DNA from: Alentia gelatinosa
Taxonomy: Eukaryota > Annelida > Polychaeta > Phyllodocida > Polynoidae
Reading direction: 5' to 3'
DNA length: 64,000 nucleotides
NCBI GenBank assembly: GCA_950022655.1
Contig: OX465583.1
Coordinates: forward strand, 30,531,360-30,595,359
A program made the translations under genes and the position numbers. This document shows positions 5,842 through 58,409 of this stretch, one piece after another. The notes below the pieces were generated by a model, which saw only the letters and a list, made by a program, of their open reading frames with translations, was not told where the DNA came from and ran no database searches. The number at the start of each line of letters is the position of its first letter. Position 1 is the stretch's first letter.

Positions 5842-6309
5842 TTAAAGTATGAAGCTGTTCAACAGTGTGCACATGGCCCTATCCTCAAGTATTATCCGCA
5901 GTGCACGGTTCTGCAGACGTTGCAATTTGGTCAACCACTTCATATTGGCACCATCAGTCAAGATCGAGACATAGTCAAACAACGGCAACACTGCTTGTTT
6001 GTAAATTTGGATAGCTACACCCTTTGTTATCATAAATCGTATCCTTCTTAATATGAATAGTTTGTGGTTAACTTTTTTGATTGTATGTCTACAGTGTTTT
6101 TCTAAGGTCAGATTTGTGTCCAAATGGGCACCTAAATACTGGTATGAGGTAACTTTTTCTAACTTACCAAGACCCATAAATAAATCCAAGTTTTTGGTCC
6201 TGGTCAGTTTGTTTTTGGGAGCAAACCAACAATACTTGGTCTTTTTCGTATTTGCCATAAGAATGTTGATATCTGACCATTGTACAAAATTATGTAATGC
6301 CCCTTCCAT
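5842..6309 (-). pseudogene. LINE reverse transcriptase thumb region
   Basis: The frame carries the post-palm LINE segments: NTKKTKYCWFAPK, YQYLGAHLDTNLT (the YLG block), KQAVLPLFDYVS and LQRLQNRALRII. Extending the frame upstream of the first ATG recovers LYADDLVAYYSAQNPHD, so the catalytic YADD belongs to this frame. It breaks near 5,860; the next segment HTVEQLHTLTNV continues in another frame toward the MITE insertion at 5,775. Confidence 0.85.
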
Positions 6310-6353
6310 TACAGTGATGATGTCATGTGGATTCTGTGCCGAGTAATAAGCTA

Positions 6354-6794
6354 CTAAATCATCAGCATATAAGTATAATTGACTCCTGCAAAACAGTCTA
6401 CCACATCATTAATAAAGTAGTTAAACAAAACCGGCCCCAGAACCGAGCCCTGGGGAACTCCATACGTAACACTGGCCCATTGAGAGGAGGTATTTCCAAA
6501 AGCTATTTTCTGTTGTCTGTTTGTCAGATACGAAGAGTACCACTCCAATATAGTAGGACACATGTTTAATAAGCCGAGCTTCCCAAGGAGTCTACCATGA
6601 TGCACACTGTTGAACGCTTTGCGTAAATCAATAAACACAGCACAAGTAAATTCACCTCGATCACGAGATCTATACAAGTCGTTAGTTAATGAGTAAATAG
6701 CATCCAGTGTGCCACGCTCACTACCATATCCGTATTGTGCATCAGATAGTATATGATTATTATCTATATAAGACAAGAAATTTGCATGGACCAA
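6354..6794 (-). pseudogene. LINE reverse transcriptase core fragment (palm motifs A and B)
   Basis: The frame contains AQYGYGSERGTLDAI, then VFIDLRKAFNSVHH with the motif A aspartate, and YGVPQGSVLGPVLF (motif B). It ends just before the catalytic YADD. In the minus-strand DNA at about 6,355-6,375 the codons for LYADDLVAYYS are present but in a neighbouring frame, so a one-base shift separates motif C from motifs A and B. This piece joins the fragment upstream at 6,925 and the thumb fragment at 6,309. Confidence 0.88.
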
Positions 6795-6924
6795 TTTTTC
6801 CAGAATCTTTCCGGGAACAGGAAGGAGAGATATCGGTCGCCAGTTGTTAGCGTCAGAAATATCACCTGATTTTGGAAGTGCAGTGATTTTCGCAAATATG
6901 AGGGAATTTGCCCGTAGTTAAACT

Positions 6925-8094
6925 CTAGTTATATAGGAACTCAAATTGTTCTAACGTCAAACACATATACTCTTTGAGCACTGATGCCCGGATATCATCA
7001 AGACCCGAAGTTTTAGTTGGATTAATATCCATAATCAGCTCAAACAAAGTTTGAGTATTAACTACAGGTGTAGTGTACGGTACATTAATCTCATGTGGGT
7101 TCATGTCGTCAAGATTAAGAGCTGCATTTATGCTTTTATCCTGAGCTAACTTCATGCCTACTGTACTGAAAAACTTGTTCAGATAATCGGGTGACCTTTC
7201 GGATGGTAATTTCTCGCCACTAATTGGGTCCTTCAGTACAGGTGCAACAGTATTTGCTCTAGGTTTCAACATCTTGTTTAGTTCTAACCAAAATTTCTTT
7301 GGGTTCTTCTTGTTATCATCTAGTATGTTGGTTACATAATCAGCCTTGGCTGCTCTAACAAATCTCTTAACTTCTCTTTTTTTATTTCTAAGTTTATCTA
7401 AGCTCCAAGTACTTGGATTCTCTAGATAGTTTGATAAAGCTATTTTGCGTTCTTTAATGAGGGCTCTGATATCATTTGTCATCCAACGATTACCTACCTC
7501 TTTTGTTCTCCAACTTTTCTTCGGACAATTATAATCTAGATAATCAGTTAAGTTATTCAAAAGTTCTTCCCATATTTGATCAGGATCACTTAGTGTCCAA
7601 AAATGTGCCCAGTCTGTGTGGAAGACCCAATCTTGGAGTTTCTCATTGGAATGTCTGTTATAAATACGCCCCGTAACCGATACACTCTGGCTATCGTGCT
7701 TAGATTTAGTCTTAACCATATATACAGGCAGATGATCACTACAATAAAAATTAACTTCACCATAATCCAATGAATCAGTCGACGAACAAAGTATGTTATC
7801 AAGACACGAGCCCGTTTTGGCAAAAGGCCTGGTACACTGGTTAATAAGTCTTTTCAGTGAAAAATCTTTACAAAAATCACTAATTAAGTCTATATTTGCT
7901 CCAGAAGGGATGAGGAAATTAATATTATAATCACCTAACAAATAGAACTCATGCTTGGCATACTGTACATCTCTTAGGATTTCATTTAGATAAGATAAAG
8001 CTCTTGCCAAGTTGCTTCCATGGCAAAAATATATTGTACAGACAATGATAGGCTTTGTATGGGGTTTCATTATTTCCATTGTTAGTATTTCCAA
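6925..8094 (-). pseudogene. LINE endonuclease C-terminal half and start of reverse transcriptase
   Basis: This 389-codon open stretch is the longest intact piece of the LINE. GDYNIN at residues 54-59 corresponds to the GDFN-type catalytic block of apurinic-type endonucleases, and SDHLPV at 119-124 is the terminal SDH catalytic motif. A lysine- and arginine-rich linker (residues about 205-290) follows. The segment NPTKTSGLDDI at 358-368 marks the N-terminal RT block. The frame ends near 6,925; immediately beyond it, in another frame (6,800-6,900), are the expected RT pieces ITALPKSGDISD and NWRPISLLPVPGK, so a frameshift rather than a true stop ends it. The protein would nick target DNA and prime reverse transcription, but this copy is inactive as it stands. 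Confidence 0.85.
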
Positions 8095-8146
8095 ATCTAT
8101 TGTTATATCACAATATTTGTTAACACGAAATGCATAGTTAGCTAGA

Positions 8147-8398
8147 TCATTCTTGATATAGCAAGCTACCCCCCCCCCCTATTTTGTTTTCACGATCCAT
8201 TCTATAAACTTTCCTATCTTGCCATAGTACCATGTCGTCTGTGTAATTGCTATTAAACCAAGTTTCACTAAAAGTAGCCACGTCGGCTCTGGCCAACGCA
8301 TCGAATACTTCATCAAATTTGTTGCACAGGCTCTGACAGTTCAGATGCGATATACATAATCCCGTCATACCATTCAAACAAGTAATACTGTTAGTCAT
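8147..8398 (-). pseudogene. LINE endonuclease, N-terminal fragment
   Basis: This frame opens with ISHLNCQSLCNKFDEV at about residues 16-31 and continues to SETWFNSNYTDD. That is the usual start of a LINE apurinic-type endonuclease, whose first catalytic residues lie in the N and E of these blocks. The reading frame is lost at KIGGGG, where the DNA has a run of eleven C (8,169-8,179, plus strand). Shifting frame at the run gives VACYIKNDLANYAF, the expected continuation, so a length change in the homopolymer is the probable break. The first ATG at 8,398 is a plausible ORF2 start. Confidence 0.8.
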
Positions 8399-39551: not shown

Positions 39552-39650
39552 AGAATTATTAATGAAGTATGGGATCCTGACGACCAAACTAGTGAAGACT
39601 ACAAGAAATGTGGTAAACCTGGTGAGGATGACCTGAGAATAAGTAATAAC

Positions 39651-41300
39651 ATGAACAACTATTTCTCGGAAATTGGAGAAAATATACTAAGAAATTTGGG
39701 TCCGGTTGATATAGATGAACTAGAGAAAGCCCAGACTATGCAATATCTAGAAAATAATGAAACAGTAGTTACAACGGTAAGCAATAAGGAAGTTATGGAC
39801 GTAATTAAGACGCTTGAGACTAATAAGTCAACTGGAATCCCACATTTAAAATCGGGACAACTAAAGGAAATAATGTTAATAAATCCATCTATTGTTCGGG
39901 ACCTAATAAATTACACTATAACAACTAGAACCTACCCAGAGACACTAAAAGAAGGGGTGATAACCCCGATCCCTAAGGCCGGAGATCTATCAAATTTTAC
40001 CAATTGGAGGCCCATAACCGTAATACCAACTGTTTCAAAAATCATCGAAAAGGTCTTACAATCACAGATCATGAAGTACCTAATACAAAATAACATAATA
40101 AACAAAAATCAATACGGATTTATGCAGAATAGAAGTACTGGCCAAGCCATCTTCCGAATGACACACATTCTGCATCAGGGTATGAACAGAAATCAATACA
40201 ACCTATGCACACTGATAGACCTCCGAAAGGCGTTTGATAGTGTCTCGCATCAGATACTATTCGTAACATTGAGCAAACTGGGTTTCGATAATAATACCAT
40301 AGACCTGATGAGATCATATTTAAGGGATCGAAACCAACGTATAAAGCTACAAAAAACTCATTCAGCAAAAAGAAAGGTAGACTGTGGGGTACCACAGGGA
40401 TCGGTACTGGGTCCGGTTTTATTTATAATTTTTATTAATAGCATCTTCCGAGTAATTACCCATGGTACCGCAATAATGTATGCCGATGACCTGGCAATAG
40501 TTGTTACCTCAAATACCCCATTATCAGCCAGAATACAAATGCAGAAGAATCTTGACAGCATATCCGCATGGTGTGACACCCATAAAATGCTGGTCAACAC
40601 CAAGAAATCATACCAAATATGGTTCGGGAAGGGCACAGGAATAGGTGAAATACCAGCCTGTTATATTAAAAATGAAGAACTGAAGGAGGTAAACAGTGTT
40701 ACCTACTTAGGCATTATCATGGATTCCAAACTGACCTTTAAACAACAAACGGAAAAAATAGTATATGACTTAAGACAAAAACACAATAAACTAAGACTAC
40801 TGCGATATTGCATCCCAAAACAAACATGTGTAAAAATTCTAAAGCAGATGATATTACCTAAGATTGAGTATGTGGGATATATATATATTGGAATGTCAGA
40901 TAGGAATATTGATAGATTGAGAGTGGCATTTAATAACTGCATGCATACAGCCCTGGGGATAAGAAGAGCCATTGAACACCCTGTAGCTGAAATGTTCACT
41001 AGTTGCAGCATAAAACCACTAAAATATCGCAGGTTAATACAATTGATGATGATGATGTACTGGTGGTCACATGACCCTGAGCATATAATATCAAAAGAAC
41101 AGCACATAACACGTAAAGACCATAAAATAAATATAAAATTAAATAGACCCAGAACAATGAAATATCAAAATTCACCACTATATCTAGGAGTAAAAATATG
41201 GGAAAAGCTACCAACTGAAATTCAATCGGAAATTGCGATAAGTAACTATAAACAGCATATAAAAGTCTTTTTGGACGAACATCCAGATTTTTGGTTATAA
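39651..41300 (+). CDS. LINE reverse transcriptase (549 codons, uninterrupted)
   Basis: The frame holds all the expected RT blocks in order. PIPKAGDLSNFTNWRPITV spans about residues 107-124, LIDLRKAFDS is at 188-197 with the catalytic aspartate D190, CGVPQGSVLGPVLF is at 245-258, and MYADDLAIV is at 276-284 with the catalytic YADD at 277-280. Downstream are TYLGIIMDSKL (351-361) and a C-terminal LGVKIWEKLPTEI block (512-524), typical of Jockey/CR1-type ORF2. The product would copy LINE RNA at a nicked target. ATG at 39,651 is only the first methionine after the stop at 39,549, not a natural start. With no endonuclease the copy cannot transpose by itself. Confidence 0.9.
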   Translation: MNNYFSEIGENILRNLGPVDIDELEKAQTMQYLENNETVVTTVSNKEVMDVIKTLETNKSTGIPHLKSGQLKEIMLINPSIVRDLINYTITTRTYPETLKEGVITPIPKAGDLSNFTNWRPITVIPTVSKIIEKVLQSQIMKYLIQNNIINKNQYGFMQNRSTGQAIFRMTHILHQGMNRNQYNLCTLIDLRKAFDSVSHQILFVTLSKLGFDNNTIDLMRSYLRDRNQRIKLQKTHSAKRKVDCGVPQGSVLGPVLFIIFINSIFRVITHGTAIMYADDLAIVVTSNTPLSARIQMQKNLDSISAWCDTHKMLVNTKKSYQIWFGKGTGIGEIPACYIKNEELKEVNSVTYLGIIMDSKLTFKQQTEKIVYDLRQKHNKLRLLRYCIPKQTCVKILKQMILPKIEYVGYIYIGMSDRNIDRLRVAFNNCMHTALGIRRAIEHPVAEMFTSCSIKPLKYRRLIQLMMMMYWWSHDPEHIISKEQHITRKDHKINIKLNRPRTMKYQNSPLYLGVKIWEKLPTEIQSEIAISNYKQHIKVFLDEHPDFWL

Positions 41301-49200: not shown

Positions 49201-49563
49201 GTAAGATGATCTCAGTAGTTAGCTATAACCTTGAAGAGGGTGCTTATATGCTAAGCCAAGATTGACCACACATAGGCATGGTGTTTTAAAGTCAAATCTA
49301 TTAAAAAACGGTAAAAAAAACTACAAATACAGGGTTTATTATGTGTAATTAATCAATTTATACTTAATTAGGTTTTTATAAAATAAATTGGTAATATAAG
49401 ATTGCAATTTTCATATAATACAGACTTGGATGGTTAATGGCAAATGAAATATGCTACCAGTAGTGTCCCTAAGTGGCAGAGAATGGAACTTTTTGAGATT
49501 GGTGTATATACAACGGAATCAGGCATATATATGACGTATATAAGACCGCACCATGGACATGTA

Positions 49564-49706
49564 TTTATCTCACCCCTGGAATAAATGCCCATAGGCTTAA
49601 CATTGGGAACTCGTTCTCCATGCCCCTACGAGTATTGTGGTCCGTTCTCCATGGTCTAAATCCTGTGTGTCATCCATTCTTTTCATGTGTATAGGGGTGA
49701 GATAAA
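49564..49706 (+). repeat. Short TIR element of the CATAGGCTTAACAT family, copy 4
   Basis: The ends are TTTATCTCACCCC and GGGGTGAGATAAA, perfect inverted repeats of 13 bp. The interior begins GCCCATAGGCTTAACATTGG and continues to GAACTCG, as in the copy at 35.96 kb. It lies about 115 bp upstream of the Ngaro insertion. Confidence 0.75.
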
Positions 49707-49820
49707 TACAGAAAGCAACTCGTTTTGGTCAAAGAAGTCATTCTGCAACTCGTTTGAATGCTACATGATATTCACTTGGCTGTCGCCTTGTTCATATCAC
49801 TCCGCATCAAACTTGGGGAG

Positions 49821-50010
49821 AATGGGTTGCCCATGGCCTTTGGTCAGGGGTGGTCATTGCCCCCCCTGGTGAAACCACTCTACACTCGCGCACCCCTGCG
49901 CCACCTCTCCCCTCTCGGCTGCACTAAACATCAAAGTGCGCGAGTGCGACACTGTCCTCTGTCTCATTCGCTTCACTGGTCTCCTTCGCTCAACACCTAT
50001 TTTTTCTACC
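49821..50010 (+). repeat. Ngaro split direct repeat A1 (190 bp)
   Basis: This repeat starts AATGGGTTGCCCATGGCC and ends CACCTATTTTTTCTACC. It is identical by eye to A2. An 11-bp stem, CACTCGCGCAC (49,883-49,893) with GTGCGCGAGTG (49,936-49,946), forms a hairpin around a loop of 42 bases. In the Ngaro model it is the 5' terminal repeat and contains or lies near the promoter. Confidence 0.95.
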
Positions 50011-50118
50011 GCTCCTTGGCCCTATCGCCCTCCGTACCTTCGGTCTCCGTATTCCCCTGAATATCGGCAGACGAGGACAGGGTTACCAAGCGATTCAGTA
50101 AGGAATTATAGTTCAGGC

Positions 50119-51303
50119 ATGTTGACCAGAAGCGCTGTGGCGGCATCCGCACCCGCGGAGGCCGAGACGGACTCGGAAATAACGATAAGACAGCCGGCAG
50201 CCGAGAGCGACCACGTGGACTCGGTATCTCAACAGGGAACGAGCGCCAGCGCACGGACTCGGACTTCACGCATCACAGCCCTGGAGGCCAACCTCGGGGG
50301 GGTCAGGACAGACGTCAACAAAGTAAAGACAGACGTCGGTGAAGTCAGGACGGATATGACCAAAATATCGCGCCAGATGGACGGCATGATGGACGCGATC
50401 ATGCAGATCTCCAGACCGACCTCGCGCCGGGCCGACTCACGGGCTTCGTCAGCGGCCGAACGGACGAGAGACTGGGCCCAGGATCAGAACGAGCGCCTCC
50501 TCCCCGCGCCCAGGGCACTCCGAGAGGCATACACGACCGAGGAACACCTCCAGCGTGAATTCGGCCGTGAGGCCATGCGACACGACCGCACAACGGGTAA
50601 GAGCCTACTTTCTGACTTAAATGCCCGGAGGCCGACGGCGAAGCCGTACATGTTTATGGACAGAGATGGGGTGTACACGCTGCACCAGAAACTGGACCTA
50701 CGGTCGAGCCTCGGGCCTCTGGAGTACATTTCATGTTTTGTGGCCTTATTGAATGACGATCGCGCCTTGCACCCCGAGGACAAGGAGCATATGTTCAAAC
50801 ATCTATACCAGGTGACCGTTGATGCGCAGGCACGGCCGTGGGCCGGCGTCAGACGCTGGTCAAACTATGTTTTCGACCAGGTCGAGTCGGGCAGGATGCG
50901 ATGGTCGGATCACGGCCGGATACAGGAAGAACGTGTCCGGCTCGCGATGACCAGTGCCCACACCGCAAACAGCAGTCAAAACACGGAGACCGGACGTGCC
51001 CGGGGGAGCGAGGCCCCGTGCCGGGACTTCAATGGAGAGAGGGGGTGCCGCCACCGCAGCGACCACACTGAAGGGGGTATCCGGTGGTTGCACGTGTGCA
51101 CGTTTTGCGACTCGGTGGGCAGGAAGTGCGGTCACTCTGTGCACGCCTGCAACCGCAAGCTGACATACGGACACGGGTACGACAACACGGCGGCTCCCCC
51201 TGTACCCACACCCCGGCGGGTACCCCAGGCGGGGTATCAACTGCAGGCTACTACCAGGCCGGCGGCAGCGCAGAGTGTGGTACACCAACCTCAGCCGAGT
51301 TAA
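50119..51303 (+). CDS. gag: Ngaro Gag-like protein (ORF1)
   Basis: This is the first ORF of the element, placed where Gag lies in Ngaro and DIRS elements. The frame is open from 49,936, inside repeat A1, but the first ATG is at 50,119 and gives 394 residues, so I chose it. Residues 52-97 form heptad-like repeats (VRTDVNKVKTDVGEVRTDM), a likely coiled coil for multimerisation. A serine/arginine-rich stretch follows. Near the C-terminus is a Cys/His cluster: C301-x8-C310, then HVCTFC with cysteines at 327 and 330, followed by GHSVHAC. This is a nucleic-acid-binding finger of the type found in DIRS-group Gag proteins. The tail is rich in P, A and Q. The stop TAA at 51,301 opens a run of seven A, and the RT frame overlaps the end in the -1 frame. 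Confidence 0.82.
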   Translation: MLTRSAVAASAPAEAETDSEITIRQPAAESDHVDSVSQQGTSASARTRTSRITALEANLGGVRTDVNKVKTDVGEVRTDMTKISRQMDGMMDAIMQISRPTSRRADSRASSAAERTRDWAQDQNERLLPAPRALREAYTTEEHLQREFGREAMRHDRTTGKSLLSDLNARRPTAKPYMFMDRDGVYTLHQKLDLRSSLGPLEYISCFVALLNDDRALHPEDKEHMFKHLYQVTVDAQARPWAGVRRWSNYVFDQVESGRMRWSDHGRIQEERVRLAMTSAHTANSSQNTETGRARGSEAPCRDFNGERGCRHRSDHTEGGIRWLHVCTFCDSVGRKCGHSVHACNRKLTYGHGYDNTAAPPVPTPRRVPQAGYQLQATTRPAAAQSVVHQPQPS

Positions 51304-54227
51304 AAAAACGGGCCGGCCGCGCCCCGCCAGTAGACGAGGCGCGCAAGAAAGATGAAAGGGGTGCCGGCAGGACTGAGTGTTGTGTTACGAATCCGGCTCC
51401 CCCACGTGACGTCACCTATCACGTGACCCCCTCGGCACGTGGCCGAGGGGTCCAGATAAACAACAACATTGACGGGCCGAATACACTCCCGGAGGAGATA
51501 CCCCCCGTTTCACCGGCGGAGGCCGCCCCCGGCACCGTGGGGGATGATGGTCTCAGTCGCTTGCCGGGTGTTAGTGTTAGTGCGCCGGAATCTAACACTC
51601 CCGACTTTAAAGCACTCCGCGATGTCTGCGAAACGGGAATCCACCGGGAGGGCGTGAGTACGGACCCGTTAGCCTTCAAACAACATCGCCGGGAGACTTG
51701 GCCGGAGTTCACGGCCGTGGGGCCCGCCAGGCACGCGGAAATATACCGGACCGTGCGTGACACGGGAATCCCCAACGCACTCGGCGCCAGGGTCGAGGTG
51801 CCTTCGGATCTAAACCTACCTGCATGGGACCATTACCTAGGACACATGGAGGAGGCGCAGGAGCTCCTAGGCTTCCTGCGATACGGTTTCCCCCTGGGAT
51901 ACCTGGGACCGGAGAGTGATACCAGAGGGGTGGCCAACCACCCCAGCGCAACCTCTCACCCCGTGCAGGTAGAGAAGTTTCTCGAAAAGGAGGCGGGCTT
52001 TACCAATATGATGGGCCCGTTCGCCGAACCGCCTTTTAGCCCGTGGTGTCACGTGTCGCCACTCATGACACGGGAGAAACGCGGGACGGACGACCGGCGC
52101 ATCATTACCGATATGACTTTCCCGAGGGAGTGCAGCGTGAACTCGTTCATCATTAAGAACTCGGTCTACGGACTGGAGCGAGAACACGGCCTCCCTACGG
52201 TGGACGAGTTTGTGGCCAAACTCGTCAAGGCAGGCACGTCGGCCTACATGTCGTCCATCGACGTGTCGCGTGCCTACAAGAACTTTAGGTGCGATCCCCT
52301 CGACTGGCCTCTGTTGTGTTTCACGTGGGGGGGCGGGCACTACTGCGATACGGCCATGCCGTTCGGCGCCCGTGCCTCCTCATACCACATGCAGTGTGTG
52401 GCGGAGGCCATCGTGGGGATACTATCATCAAAGGGAGTCACGGCCGCGATGTACCTCGACGACCTCATCATCCTCTCCGAGGACCGAGGTAAGGCGGCCG
52501 AGGACTTCAGGGTCGCGCGAGACCTTTTCTCGGAATTGGGCCTACCCGAGGCACGCGACAAAGCACAGGAGCCGAGCCAGACCGTGACGTGGTTGGGGAT
52601 AGAGATCGACGCCCGTGCCATGTCTCTATCGATCCCCACGGCCAAGCTGGAGGACATCCGTGGTCACGTGTCGGCCGTAGCCAAACGACGAACGTTGACG
52701 AAACGACAGCTTCAGTCGGTGCTCGGCCGGATATTACACGTGGCTAGGTGTATACGTCCGGCGCGGGCATTCGTCTCAAAGCTACTCGAGGCCCTACGGG
52801 GGATGAGGGGCTTTTACATGAACATCAATTCCGAGATGCGCCAGGACCTCGACTGGTTCGTTAAGTTTGCCCGGGGCTGGAACGGCCGCGCCCTCATCCC
52901 TCGGGGTCCACCGACGCGGAGGATCACGGTGGATGCATGCCTGTCGGGCGTCGGAGGGACCGACGGCCGGTTCTCGTACTCCGGACAGGTGTGCCCCGTC
53001 TTCGATCCCGTGGAGTGCATCTCAGAGCTCGAGGCTCTGAATACCATCTACGCACTCCACACATTTATCACAGACAGGGATCGGGGATCACGGATTGAGG
53101 TGTTCTGTGATAACCTCGGAACTGTTCAGACCCTCAATAGCGGGCGTGCCCGTAACCCTGTCCTGGCGGAGTGTGCCCGCCAGGCATGGATGGTGCAGGC
53201 ACGTCTGCAGGTGGAACTGGTCTTCAGCCATATCCCCGGGGTGCAAAACGTCATCGCAGATGCCCTGAGCAGAGCCCATCTGTCGAGGACGGAATACGAT
53301 AAGGCCACTTCCCTCATTCACATTCATGAGTTGTACCCTATCGTACCGTGTACCCATGCCTCTTTTGTACCCGTACTCCGTCTCTTCTGCAGATCGGGCG
53401 CTTCTCTTACTCCAGGCGAAGGCATCTGCGAGGCAGTCAGAGGCGCGTGCCCCAGGTACGCTCGCAAACCAGCGATCCGCAGTCACCACCTACCTGGCGT
53501 TCTGCAACCGGATGAGAGCGGACCCCCGGGCACCGACCGTGAGCCTGATCACGTCGTATCTGGAATACGTGGCGGACCACGCCCCCTCGCCGGCCACGGT
53601 CGCCAACCAGTTATCGCACGTCCGGGCACACCTCCGACTGACGGGGGGGGACGTGCAGCCAACAGAGGATCACCGGGTGAAGCGTGCCCTCGAGGGCATG
53701 AGGAGAAACAAGCTGTACGTGCCAAACGTGAAGGCCCCCATACCAATGGATGTGTTCAGGGCGGTCCTCGACGCACTGACGGGATCGCCCCTCCATACGG
53801 CAATGAGGGCGGGCATGCTCCTCATTTTCTACGCGGCCCTACGGCAGGGGGAGGTGGCGCCGCAGTCGGCTCGGGCATTCGACCCGGCTCGGAACCTCAC
53901 TCGCGGGGACGTGGTCCTCGGCCGCCGGCATCTCACCATCACCATCAAGGCGGCCAAAAATCTTCAATACGTAGGGCAACAGAAAGTGATGCGCCTCGAG
54001 GCCGCGGACGATATCCGGGTGTGCCCGGTAGACGCGGTTCGAGGCCTACTACGGGCGGCCCCTACGGCTTCATTGTGGGACCCGTTCCTGACACTGCCCG
54101 ATGGGACGACCATCACATCACGGGTTATGACCAACGAATGGGACCGCCTCCTACAGGCCACAGGCCAAACGGTGAAGACATACACCCTCCACAGCCTCAG
54201 GAAGGCCGCTGCCACTCAGGCATTTGA
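51084..54227 (+). CDS. Ngaro reverse transcriptase / RNase H (ORF2)
   Basis: Counting from the start of the open frame at 51,084, the RT part shows SSIDVSRAYKNF with catalytic D393, AMPFGARASSYHMQ (motif B) and MYLDDLIILS with catalytic YLDD at 457-460, followed by VTWLGIEID. RNase H follows with ITVDACLSG (D617), ISELEALN (E648 or E650), VFCDNLGT (D676) and HIPG...IADALSR (H716, D726). The frame opens inside gag in the -1 frame and has no ATG until 51,846 (residue 255), just before the RT core. It may be made by -1 frameshifting, by reinitiation after the gag stop, or from the internal ATG; no canonical slippery heptamer was seen. Beyond about 53,400 the frame stays open as a P/G/R-rich tail overlapping the recombinase and is probably not functional. 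Confidence 0.94.
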   Translation: MVARVHVLRLGGQEVRSLCARLQPQADIRTRVRQHGGSPCTHTPAGTPGGVSTAGYYQAGGSAECGTPTSAELKKRAGRAPPVDEARKKDERGAGRTECCVTNPAPPRDVTYHVTPSARGRGVQINNNIDGPNTLPEEIPPVSPAEAAPGTVGDDGLSRLPGVSVSAPESNTPDFKALRDVCETGIHREGVSTDPLAFKQHRRETWPEFTAVGPARHAEIYRTVRDTGIPNALGARVEVPSDLNLPAWDHYLGHMEEAQELLGFLRYGFPLGYLGPESDTRGVANHPSATSHPVQVEKFLEKEAGFTNMMGPFAEPPFSPWCHVSPLMTREKRGTDDRRIITDMTFPRECSVNSFIIKNSVYGLEREHGLPTVDEFVAKLVKAGTSAYMSSIDVSRAYKNFRCDPLDWPLLCFTWGGGHYCDTAMPFGARASSYHMQCVAEAIVGILSSKGVTAAMYLDDLIILSEDRGKAAEDFRVARDLFSELGLPEARDKAQEPSQTVTWLGIEIDARAMSLSIPTAKLEDIRGHVSAVAKRRTLTKRQLQSVLGRILHVARCIRPARAFVSKLLEALRGMRGFYMNINSEMRQDLDWFVKFARGWNGRALIPRGPPTRRITVDACLSGVGGTDGRFSYSGQVCPVFDPVECISELEALNTIYALHTFITDRDRGSRIEVFCDNLGTVQTLNSGRARNPVLAECARQAWMVQARLQVELVFSHIPGVQNVIADALSRAHLSRTEYDKATSLIHIHELYPIVPCTHASFVPVLRLFCRSGASLTPGEGICEAVRGACPRYARKPAIRSHHLPGVLQPDESGPPGTDREPDHVVSGIRGGPRPLAGHGRQPVIARPGTPPTDGGGRAANRGSPGEACPRGHEEKQAVRAKREGPHTNGCVQGGPRRTDGIAPPYGNEGGHAPHFLRGPTAGGGGAAVGSGIRPGSEPHSRGRGPRPPASHHHHQGGQKSSIRRATESDAPRGRGRYPGVPGRRGSRPTTGGPYGFIVGPVPDTARWDDHHITGYDQRMGPPPTGHRPNGEDIHPPQPQEGRCHSGI

Positions 54228-54360
54228 GGCAGGAATACCTGAACTTAACATCCAGAGGTATGGAGGGTGGAGGTCCCAGGCTCATAGAGACTACATCAAA
54301 GTATCAGACCAAGAGACTGTCAACAAGTCTCTCATTGAGTCTCTCTCCTTCAGAAAGTGA
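53326..54360 (+). CDS. Ngaro tyrosine recombinase (ORF3)
   Basis: The 344-residue frame starts at an ATG and overlaps the RT/RNase H frame. It shows the tyrosine recombinase fold: a SAM-like N-terminal part (residues about 40-130, with TLANQRSAVTTYLAFC) and a catalytic domain. ALRQGEV carries R173, and HSLRKAAATQAF carries the H289-x-x-R292 pair. GGWRSQAHRDYI carries W315 in the second histidine position, a common replacement, and the nucleophile Y323. K208 or K211 is the likely catalytic lysine. In this family the enzyme inserts a circular double-stranded copy into the genome by strand exchange, in place of a DDE integrase. All catalytic residues are present, so the copy may be active. The stop is 48 bp before repeat B1. 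Confidence 0.95.
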   Translation: MSCTLSYRVPMPLLYPYSVSSADRALLLLQAKASARQSEARAPGTLANQRSAVTTYLAFCNRMRADPRAPTVSLITSYLEYVADHAPSPATVANQLSHVRAHLRLTGGDVQPTEDHRVKRALEGMRRNKLYVPNVKAPIPMDVFRAVLDALTGSPLHTAMRAGMLLIFYAALRQGEVAPQSARAFDPARNLTRGDVVLGRRHLTITIKAAKNLQYVGQQKVMRLEAADDIRVCPVDAVRGLLRAAPTASLWDPFLTLPDGTTITSRVMTNEWDRLLQATGQTVKTYTLHSLRKAAATQAFEAGIPELNIQRYGGWRSQAHRDYIKVSDQETVNKSLIESLSFRK

Positions 54361-54408
54361 CTATAAAAAACTTTCCCACCCTCCTCTTCCCTTAACTATT
54401 GGCTTCTT

Positions 54409-54707
54409 GGCTATTTCTATTATTTTATTATTACATGTTATGTTTAACTATGTAATATCACATAATCGTCATTTATCTTATATCAAATATTATCAGAAAT
54501 TGACAAATACATATCTATGTCATTTTCAATATTTGTCATATTCTCACAAATGTTATCACAATTGACAAACACATATCTATGTCAATTTCTATATTTGTCT
54601 TATCATTGATACTCATGTATTTCTCTTATTCATATCAATAAGACTCATAAAATTAAATAAAATTTTATAAGCCCACTACGGCCTTCACTCTGTTTCATTG
54701 GGGATCT
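54409..54707 (+). repeat. Ngaro split direct repeat B1 (299 bp)
   Basis: This AT-rich repeat starts GGCTATTTCTATTATTTT and ends TTTCATTGGGGATCT. It contains two related hairpin units, GACAAATA (54,502-54,509) with TATTTGTC (54,530-54,537), and a second about 60 bp later. AAATAAAATT near 54,655 supplies an AATAAA polyadenylation signal. It runs almost directly into A2. Confidence 0.95.
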
Positions 54708-54712
54708 GGGGT

Positions 54713-54902
54713 AATGGGTTGCCCATGGCCTTTGGTCAGGGGTGGTCATTGCCCCCCCTGGTGAAACCACTCTACACTCGCGCACCCCTGCGCCACCTCT
54801 CCCCTCTCGGCTGCACTAAACATCAAAGTGCGCGAGTGCGACACTGTCCTCTGTCTCATTCGCTTCACTGGTCTCCTTCGCTCAACACCTATTTTTTCTA
54901 CC
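54713..54902 (+). repeat. Ngaro split direct repeat A2 (190 bp)
   Basis: This is identical by eye to A1. Its junction with B1 (GGGGTAATGGGTTGCC) contains, in order, the right-end sequence GGGTAATG and the left-end sequence AATGGGTTGCC, overlapping by AATG. It therefore reproduces the junction expected in the circular form. Confidence 0.95.
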
Positions 54903-54944
54903 CACCCACCCACTCCTCTTCTCTCCTACTCCTTACACTCGTAG

Positions 54945-55243
54945 GGCTATTTCTATTATTTTATTATTACATGTTATGTTTAACTATGTAATATCACATA
55001 ATCGTCATTTATCTTATATCAAATATTATCAGAAATTGACAAATACATATCTATGTCATTTTCAATATTTGTCATATTCTCACAAATGTTATCACAATTG
55101 ACAAACACATATCTATGTCAATTTCTATATTTGTCTTATCATTGATACTCATGTATTTCTCTTATTCATATCAATAAGACTCATAAAATTAAATAAAATT
55201 TTATAAGCCCACTACGGCCTTCACTCTGTTTCATTGGGGATCT
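54945..55243 (+). repeat. Ngaro split direct repeat B2 (299 bp), right end
   Basis: This is identical to B1 by eye over 299 bp, then differs at one base (TTGGG against TGGGG) before the shared TAATG. It includes the AATAAA signal and the two hairpin units. Host repeat sequence resumes at about 55,253 with ATGACTTTGACC. Confidence 0.95.
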
Positions 55244-55252
55244 TGGGTAATG

Positions 55253-57719: not shown

Positions 57720-58048
57720 CCCTTTAAGGACAACTGCCTGGGGTCCAGCTAGTCCCATAAGGACGGATACTGGTGGCAGTCTCGCTGGCTACAGGACGGC
57801 CACATAATAGTAAAAACTGATATCCAAGTTTGTAATCATGCAATATGATACATAATCATAAATATTTTATTTCTTTTTAATAGAAATACCAAATATGATA
57901 TTATATCTACATTTTCTGAAGATTTTTTGAATATTGCTCTATTATTTCTTTGTTAAAACATTTTTCTTAATATTGGGGCAATGATACCTCAAGGCATCAT
58001 GCATCTTTAGTGCGGTGATGCCTCCAGGCATCATGCGTCCTTAAAGGG
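57720..58048. mobile_element. piggyBac-type MITE copy B, left half of a tandem dimer
   Basis: It begins TTAACCCTTTAAGGAC, with an extra TTAACCC step outside (TTAA at 57,708 and 57,716), and ends GTCCTTAAAGGGTTAA. Subterminal palindromes of the form GATGCCTC(A/C)AGGCATCAT lie near the right end. The interior contains TTGAATATTGCTCTATTATT. There is no coding sequence. The TTAA at 58,049-58,052 is shared with copy C. Confidence 0.82.
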
Positions 58049-58050
58049 TT

Positions 58051-58409
58051 AAGGACGGGTGCCTGCGGCCGAGCCATCCCCTTAAGGAAGGGTGATGGTG
58101 GCAGTTTCTCCCGCTAGGGGACGGGCACATATTTGTTAAAAACTATTATTTGAAAGTTCAATCATGTGATATGAAACATAATCCTAAATATTGTATTTTT
58201 TCAGAATAGAAATATTAATTGTGGTGTTAGACCTATATTCTGTGAAAATTTGAATAATATTGCTCCATTATTTATTTGTTTAAAACGAATTTGTATATTT
58301 TGGAATAATGATGCCTCAAGGCATCATTCACCCTGGGCCGGTTGATGCCTTAAGGCATCATTCGCCCTGAGCCGAATGATGCCTCAAGGCTTCATTCGCC
58401 CTTAAAGGG
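58051..58409. mobile_element. piggyBac-type MITE copy C, right half of a tandem dimer
   Basis: It follows copy B in the same orientation, starting AAGGACGGGTGCC without its own CCCTTT, and ends CCCTTAAAGGG before TTAA at 58,410-58,413. Three GATGCCT(C/T)AAGGC units precede the right end. The interior GAATAATATTGCTCCATTAT matches copy B with many differences, so the dimer is old or was formed from diverged members. Confidence 0.78.

What the first reader, a model, noticed from the sequence alone, without database searches (positions are those of the whole stretch)
49821..55252. Apparently intact, recent Ngaro retrotransposon with all catalytic residues
Seen: three open frames with complete RT, RNase H and tyrosine recombinase motif sets, and A1/A2 and B1/B2 repeats that are identical or nearly so by eye. 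Known: in Ngaro, repeat copies become identical on insertion, so identity implies a recent event. Inferred: this copy could still be mobile and may be an undescribed family in its species.
Basis: partly seen in the sequence, partly recalled or inferred. Interest (0 to 1): 0.8.

Follow-up and report, generated by a model that had tools for sequence, protein, structure and literature searches.

The report
Young Ngaro retrotransposon with overprinted recombinase
This is a recently copied, high-copy jumping element of the Ngaro type whose polymerase gene runs, in another reading frame, across most of its recombinase gene, and relatives keep that second frame free of stop codons far more often than chance allows.

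Summary
A 5432-bp element lies at 49821-55252, built A1-gag-RT/RNaseH-YR-B1-A2-B2; A repeats are identical over 190 nt, B repeats over 307 of 308. It meets the structural tests for Ngaro available here. 40 scored matches in its 1.23-Gb genome, itself included, are about 100% identical over 1 kb, so the family is young. "Intact" needs a reservation: a gag stop codon sits directly before the conserved A AAA AAC heptamer in this copy (12 of 39 copies; 27 lack it), so it probably cannot make Gag-Pol in cis. Two things go beyond an ordinary copy. (1) The pol frame stays open 276 codons into YR; other families do the same, two over 300 codons, and stops are avoided (combined P about 1e-10, five families), though the tail's residues are hardly conserved. 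Overlap as such is in the literature; stop avoidance I did not find. (2) In 25 of 25 informative insertions the left 4-nt core differs from the element's AATG while the right core is always AATG, which suggests one-sided strand inheritance. New variant of a known kind.

The parts
49821..50010 (+). A1 repeat; its first 4 nt (49821-49824) are the left recombination core
   Evidence: identical to A2; full copies start here
50119..51303 (+). gag-like ORF from ATG to stop, 394 aa, Cys/His-rich C-terminus
   Evidence: 2 distant homologs at 35% identity
51303..51309 (+). A AAA AAC slippery heptamer for a -1 shift into pol; in this copy the gag stop codon lies directly before it (its last base is the heptamer's first)
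   Evidence: heptamer in 39 of 39 copies; stop in 12 of 39, sense codon in 27 of 39
51072..54227 (+). pol frame (stop to stop): RT, RNase H, then a tail overlapping YR
   Evidence: YLDD at 52452, RNase H motifs 52929-53273
53356..54360 (+). tyrosine recombinase, 334 aa from the likely ATG (frame open from 53269)
   Evidence: AlphaFold2 pLDDT 88.5; Cre-like fold, TMq up to 0.69
53398..54227 (+). pol tail overprinted on YR: 276 codons open in both frames
   Evidence: no stop; P 0.0066 to 0.014 by the synonymous shuffles
54409..54716 (+). B1 repeat
54713..54902 (+). A2 repeat; shares AATG with the end of B1 (presumed model of the circle junction)
54945..55252 (+). B2 repeat, ends with the right core AATG (55249-55252)

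Best explanation
A young autonomous-type Ngaro retrotransposon. Shown: its parts, its ends, its recent amplification, a pol frame that overlaps most of the YR gene, and insertion at TAAT(G/T)-like sites, with no target duplication at the two sites where an empty counterpart was found. Inferred: the RNA is translated as Gag, with Pol reached by -1 frameshifting at A AAA AAC; YR is made separately, probably from its own AUG near 53356; ribosomes in the pol frame continue through the YR gene and add a loosely constrained, probably disordered tail to Pol. Reverse transcription uses the internal B1-A2 junction as template for a circle whose junction reads GGGGT-AATG-GGTTG. YR recombines that junction with a chromosomal site that needs little more than AT, and one strand's version of the core is inherited, so the target's 4 nt stay on the left and the element's AATG on the right.
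For: Domains and order. Ends. Copies. Variants shared by 2 or more of 38 copies: gag 20 synonymous to 5 nonsynonymous, pol before the overlap 28 to 15, so copying lineages are under selection. Frameshift: pol is -1 to gag; heptamer in 39 of 39 copies; first pol-frame Met is residue 259, after invariant columns Y20, N30 and W47 of alignment A1 of 22 rows. Overlap: of 114 homologs with a locatable RNase H end (of 120 listed), 39 tails are 70 aa or shorter, 11 are 71-199, 64 are 200 or longer, 30 of these 337-362. Two YR proteins fit two pol tails as overlapping frames for 214 and 210 codons, next best 20, among 24 x 75 pairs. Same genome: L048 308, L049 201, L050 324 codons open. Pooled: 348 TAA/TAG expected, at most 85 stops seen. 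Core: 39 of 39 right ends TAATG, left core differs from AATG in 25. Empty sites L043 and L027. YR start: in L050 a stop lies upstream in the YR frame and the one Met after it stands about 8 residues before the conserved block.
Against: Tail residues are weakly conserved: 40% between window and sister family L049 against 71% for YR; shared fourfold sites differ 50/86 in the overlap against 67/95 outside, P 0.089. Tail similarity does not clearly exceed a shadow-frame null. L049 alone gives P 0.098 and window 0.0066 to 0.014. The RNA fold after the heptamer is not unusual for its composition (z 0.46). In L048 the nearest upstream Met of YR is some 24 residues before the conserved block, so a YR start like ours is not general. 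The left core is shown to be the target's own letters only in L043; in L027 the related repeat has other letters there; both copies lack A2-B2. No RNA, protein or activity data. The gag stop argues against function in cis.
Confidence: 0.8

Rival explanations
1. The pol frame stays open over YR by chance and GC-rich codon use; the overlap is a passive shadow.
For: Tail residues are hardly conserved; some single sequences give modest P (window 0.0066 to 0.014, L049 0.098, L052 0.032).
Against: Five families, 37-45% identical to each other in YR, combine to P about 1e-10. L050 has 0 stops against 7.25 expected, none of 5000 shuffles as low. Pooled homologs: 348 expected, 85 at most, with Tyr codons as control for T before A.
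Confidence: 0.1
2. The open frame matters for translation and not as protein: ribosomes must not stop inside YR, for instance because YR is reached from pol by a second shift, or because early termination harms the RNA.
For: Stops are avoided while residues vary. RSG stands 39 residues after ADALSR in 44 of 75 tails of 80 or more. Six homolog tails score above 80 against YR itself, one of them only just.
Against: No shift signal was shown. YR homologs P0001, P0002, P0005 and P0006 and locus L050 have a Met some 8-13 residues before the conserved block. The in-frame fusions may be gene-model artefacts.
Confidence: 0.3
3. The one-sided core reflects a bias of mismatch repair acting on a normal double-strand exchange, not integration of a single strand.
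For: Tyrosine recombinases of the Cre fold normally exchange both strands (recalled; fold).
Against: 25 to 0 is extreme for repair bias.
Confidence: 0.4
4. A PAT/Kangaroo-type DIRS element that lost its methyltransferase.
For: PAT elements also have split direct repeats, and such a loss is suggested for a C. briggsae lineage (PMC4157794 passages).
Against: None of the 120 listed (of 213) pol relatives has the Dam/MT family PF05869 in its precomputed Pfam list.
Confidence: 0.05

Closest known systems
Ngaro-like elements of Xenopus (DIRS-53_XT, DIRS-54_XT)
   Same: A1-ORFs-B1-A2-B2 with identical repeats (DIRS-53_XT); gag-like, RT/RH, YR; [quoted passage not shown]
   Different: Xenopus elements carry an extra SGNH-hydrolase ORF, no match to it in the three frames scanned here; extent of overlap and stop avoidance are not described in the passages seen
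Ngaro elements of Cafeteria burkhardae
   Same: A1-[ORFs]-B1A2B2, GC-rich, three ORFs, solo repeats (PMC8547959 section 11)
   Different: there some types prefer virophage DNA; here AT-core sites in one 1.23-Gb genome; that section has no core analysis
DIRS1-like elements
   Same: YR, RT/RH, long ORF overlap in half of 28 elements, no target duplication (PMC3266345 passages and section 3)
   Different: inverted terminal repeats and a methyltransferase; there the YR catalytic part lies outside the overlap, here the overlap covers the first catalytic Arg and the H-x-x-R

Membership tests
Ngaro | Split direct repeats in the order A1 ... B1 A2 B2 | tested here: met
   definition from PMC9210276 and PMC8547959
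Ngaro | RT and RNase H, plus a tyrosine recombinase with R, H-x-x-R and Y | tested here: met
   RNase H by a weak RVT_3 match (E 0.01) and its motifs
Ngaro | No methyltransferase domain | tested here: met
   Pfam scan of the pol frame shows only RVT_1 and RVT_3
Ngaro | Internal repeats downstream of YR, YR on the same strand as RT | tested here: met
Ngaro | RT/YR fall in the Ngaro clade with named references | not testable with these tools
   homologs are unnamed; the tree of 108 pol rows has no reference
Ngaro | ORFs do not usually overlap (PMC3266345) | tested here: not met
   a usual trait in one paper, not a defining one; two other papers call overlaps frequent in the order, and one reports them in Xenopus Ngaro
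DIRS1-like | Inverted terminal repeats with internal complementary regions, and MT | tested here: not met
   (no inverted pairs of 20 nt or more)
PAT-like | MT domain with split direct repeats | tested here: not met
   repeats met, MT not found
LTR retrotransposon | rve integrase, target site duplication | tested here: not met

The most novel reading that the evidence does not exclude
A large part of the Ngaro group encodes an overprinted gene: Pol continues in a second frame across the recombinase gene, kept open by selection for hundreds of codons in many lineages. Ngaro integration also passes on only one strand's core, as expected if the reverse-transcribed circle enters the chromosome by a single-strand tyrosine-recombinase exchange.
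Probability: 0.4. Interest if true: 0.75.

Novelty: new variant of a known kind. Interest (0 to 1): 0.45.

Why it matters
How YR retrotransposons express their recombinase and how their cDNA enters the chromosome are, to my knowledge, unsettled. Here many near-identical insertions with readable cores, and several families with a stop-free second frame over YR, make both testable. If the frame is used as protein, it is an unannotated overlapping gene segment in a widespread retrotransposon group.

Tried and rejected
Viral and bacterial/archaeal contig scans for relatives gave nothing. PDB search by sequence with YR gave repeat-protein and other chance-like matches. NCBIfam matches (gag to IcmG/DotF, pol to group II RT, YR to Xer models) lie far below cut-off. 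Tail similarity against a shadow null was inconclusive. Tail charge did not differ from synonymous shuffles; Pro+Gly was higher (0 of 3000 shuffles as high) but may reflect dinucleotide bias. Lower polymorphism in the overlap was not used, because the copies were chosen by similarity over 53000-54000. Gag found only 2 distant homologs. Dropped rows: 6 of 120 pol homologs without a locatable RNase H end; of the other 114, 6 fused tails and 23 tails of 45 aa or shorter were left out of the pooled test, and 7 with short cores were left out of the tree (107 plus the window make its 108 rows); L009 dropped because L047 holds the same place; L049, L051 and L052 not in the combined P (L049 is the sister family, the others near relatives of L048).

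Full report
What is there. The window lies in an unnamed 1.234-Gb genome of 101 contigs. At 49821-55252 stands a GC-rich element (59-63% GC over 50001-54000, mostly 35-46% elsewhere in the window). Its frames are gag (50119-51303), pol (stop to stop 51072-54227) and YR (53269-54360). Pfam finds RVT_1 (3.6e-15) with a weak RVT_3 (0.01) in pol and Phage_integrase (1.5e-6) in YR; no methyltransferase. An AlphaFold2 model of YR (24 sequences, pLDDT 88.5) matches Cre recombinase best (TMq up to 0.69). The alignment of 24 YR proteins keeps R163 and K201 invariant and H279, R282, W305 and Y313 nearly so.

Ends and repeats. A1 and A2 are identical over 190 nt; B1 and B2 differ at one of 308. Of 40 scored genome matches one is the window; the other 39 lie in 38 loci (two matches in L047), all fetched and each compared with the window. 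They are the best of 2570 first-look candidates, so this is the most similar part of the family. Full copies align from 49821 to 55252. Within copies, B1/B2 show 0 differences in 26 of 30 copies with two B repeats of equal length and 5 differences in all 30, so the insertions are young unless gene conversion keeps the repeats alike. 7 of 38 copies end after B1 and lack A2-B2 (L013, L015, L027, L037, L041, L043, L046). That may be B1/B2 recombination or an alternative integration product.

Is it intact? Pol is in the -1 frame relative to gag. The heptamer A AAA AAC is kept in 39 of 39 copies. 27 of 39 have a sense codon directly before it; in the 22 of these whose gag is otherwise unbroken, gag ends ten codons later (404 against 394), the layout of a -1 frameshift site (recalled). 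In 12 of 39, the window copy among them, a stop codon stands there. The first Met of the pol frame is residue 259, but invariant columns of the pol alignment lie before it, so Pol most likely needs the gag frame. The window copy is therefore probably unable to make Gag-Pol in cis, although its catalytic motifs are present. Of the 38 other copies, 32 have gag of at least 394 codons and 36 have the full YR. Shared variants are mostly synonymous. The fold after the heptamer has a stem about 8 nt downstream but is no more stable than shuffles (z 0.46).

The overlap. In the window the pol frame has no stop for 276 codons of the YR gene; five stops follow in the last 45 codons. Reshuffling synonymous YR codons gives as good a result in 0.7% or 1.4% of cases, by two ways of counting. 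In protein homologs the length of the tail after RNase H is two-peaked: 39 of 114 end within 70 residues, 64 run at least 200, and 30 end at 337-362, near where YR ends in the window. Two homolog pairs show the same overlap by frame compatibility over 214 and 210 codons; P for no stop is 0.028 and 3e-6. DNA of other families in the same genome shows it directly: L048 (YR about 41% identical to ours, 308 codons open, P 0.009), its near relatives L051 (289, P 0.006) and L052 (287, P 0.032), the sister family L049 (71%, 201 codons, all that was fetched, P 0.098) and L050 (about 37%, 324 codons open, 7.25 stops expected, none of 5000 shuffles as low). The window, L048, L050 and the two homolog pairs are 37-45% identical to each other in YR; their combined P is about 1e-10, from shuffle tests for three and a codon-end test for two. 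With Tyr against His/Asn/Asp codons as a measure of T before A, 348 TAA/TAG were expected in 17,176 codons of 85 tails and at most 85 stops of any kind are seen. These homologs are related, so I lay no weight on the P printed there. A genome search with P0026 scored 47 of 14,326 candidates, among them copies of our own family; 46 of 47 had no stop in the matched pol frame. On a tree of 108 pol rows the long-tail label (180 or more, or fused) needs 11 changes against 34.6 when shuffled. Against a conserved protein: tail identity between window and L049 is 40%, YR 71%, and fourfold sites are only slightly slower in the overlap (P 0.089). The frame is kept open, its letters are nearly free.

Integration. 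Anchored without the last 11 nt, the right end reads TAATG in 39 of 39 copies. The left 4 nt vary (AATG 14, AATT 7, CATT 4, AATA 3, others 11); their second base is A in 37 of 39 and their third T in 39 of 39, and T precedes in 25 of 39. In L043 the target is a 26-bp tandem array, and the left TATT is the array's own. In L027 the joined flanks align through the junction, without a gap there, to a related repeat at window 58178-58338 (81% identical, different core letters). So at these two sites nothing was duplicated or lost, and in L043 the left core is the target's; both are copies without A2-B2. For the other insertions target origin of the left core is inferred. In 25 of 25 informative copies (18 of them with A2-B2) the foreign core is on the left and the element's on the right. 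A heteroduplex resolved at random would give both arrangements. I infer that one strand is inherited; single-strand entry or biased repair are both open.

How YR may start. P0001, P0002, P0005 and P0006 begin with Met 9-13 residues before the conserved block, and L050 has its only Met after an upstream stop about 8 residues before it; L048 has none nearer than about 24. An own AUG is likely here, not shown.

What is known. PMC3266345 (section 3) says Ngaro and Viper elements do not usually harbour ORF overlaps, and that DIRS1 integration uses a 3-bp junction and an identical genomic sequence. PMC9210276 (passages) says ORFs of the order frequently overlap and reports overlaps of all ORFs in Xenopus Ngaro; PMC6681497 (passages) says YR and RT/RH ORFs are frequently extensively overlapped. 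So overlap itself is not new, and I lowered interest from a first 0.5 to 0.45 on rereading these. I found no paper on stop avoidance or on core inheritance in Ngaro in searches (one returned none; 107 one, unrelated by its listing). Of PMC3783388 I saw the outline and the first part of the Results, of PMC4157794 passages, of PMC8547959 passages and section 11. The library lacks most subscription journals; the original Ngaro papers (recalled) were in no listing and I did not see them.

Verdict. The finding is a real, young Ngaro element whose species-level novelty cannot be judged here. What raises interest is the stop-free second frame over YR and the one-sided core.

Noticed in passing
L047 (G000:C13:28434885-28444884): One copy carries a 2.85-kb tandem duplication of its 3' half (element part from 52165 repeated, with an extra A and B repeat).
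   Followed up: partly
L013, L015, L027, L037, L041, L043, L046: All 7 copies without A2-B2 have a left core other than AATG, against 18 of the 32 others; P 0.03, found after the fact. May hint at a different integration route.
   Followed up: partly
window 54484-54603 and 55020-55139: Each B repeat holds about two 62-bp units with TTGACA...TGTCAA palindromes seen by eye; possible recombinase or regulator sites.
   Followed up: no
window 39552-41297 (+) and 5842-8178 (-): Other reverse-transcriptase frames, non-LTR by look (RVT_1 E 2e-39 and, for 6354-6917, 4.9e-24); the second is split over several frames.
   Followed up: partly
window 57852-58402: A repeat with AATGATGCCTCAAGGCATCATT units; a related copy elsewhere is the target of insertion L027.
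   Followed up: partly
window 49560-49710: An 18-bp inverted repeat (TGTATTTATCTCACCCCT and its complement), MITE-like, just upstream of the element; seen by eye.
   Followed up: no
window 51588: 9 of 19 copies aligned have a 12-bp in-frame insertion in pol here, found with and without the gag stop, which suggests recombination between lineages.
   Followed up: partly
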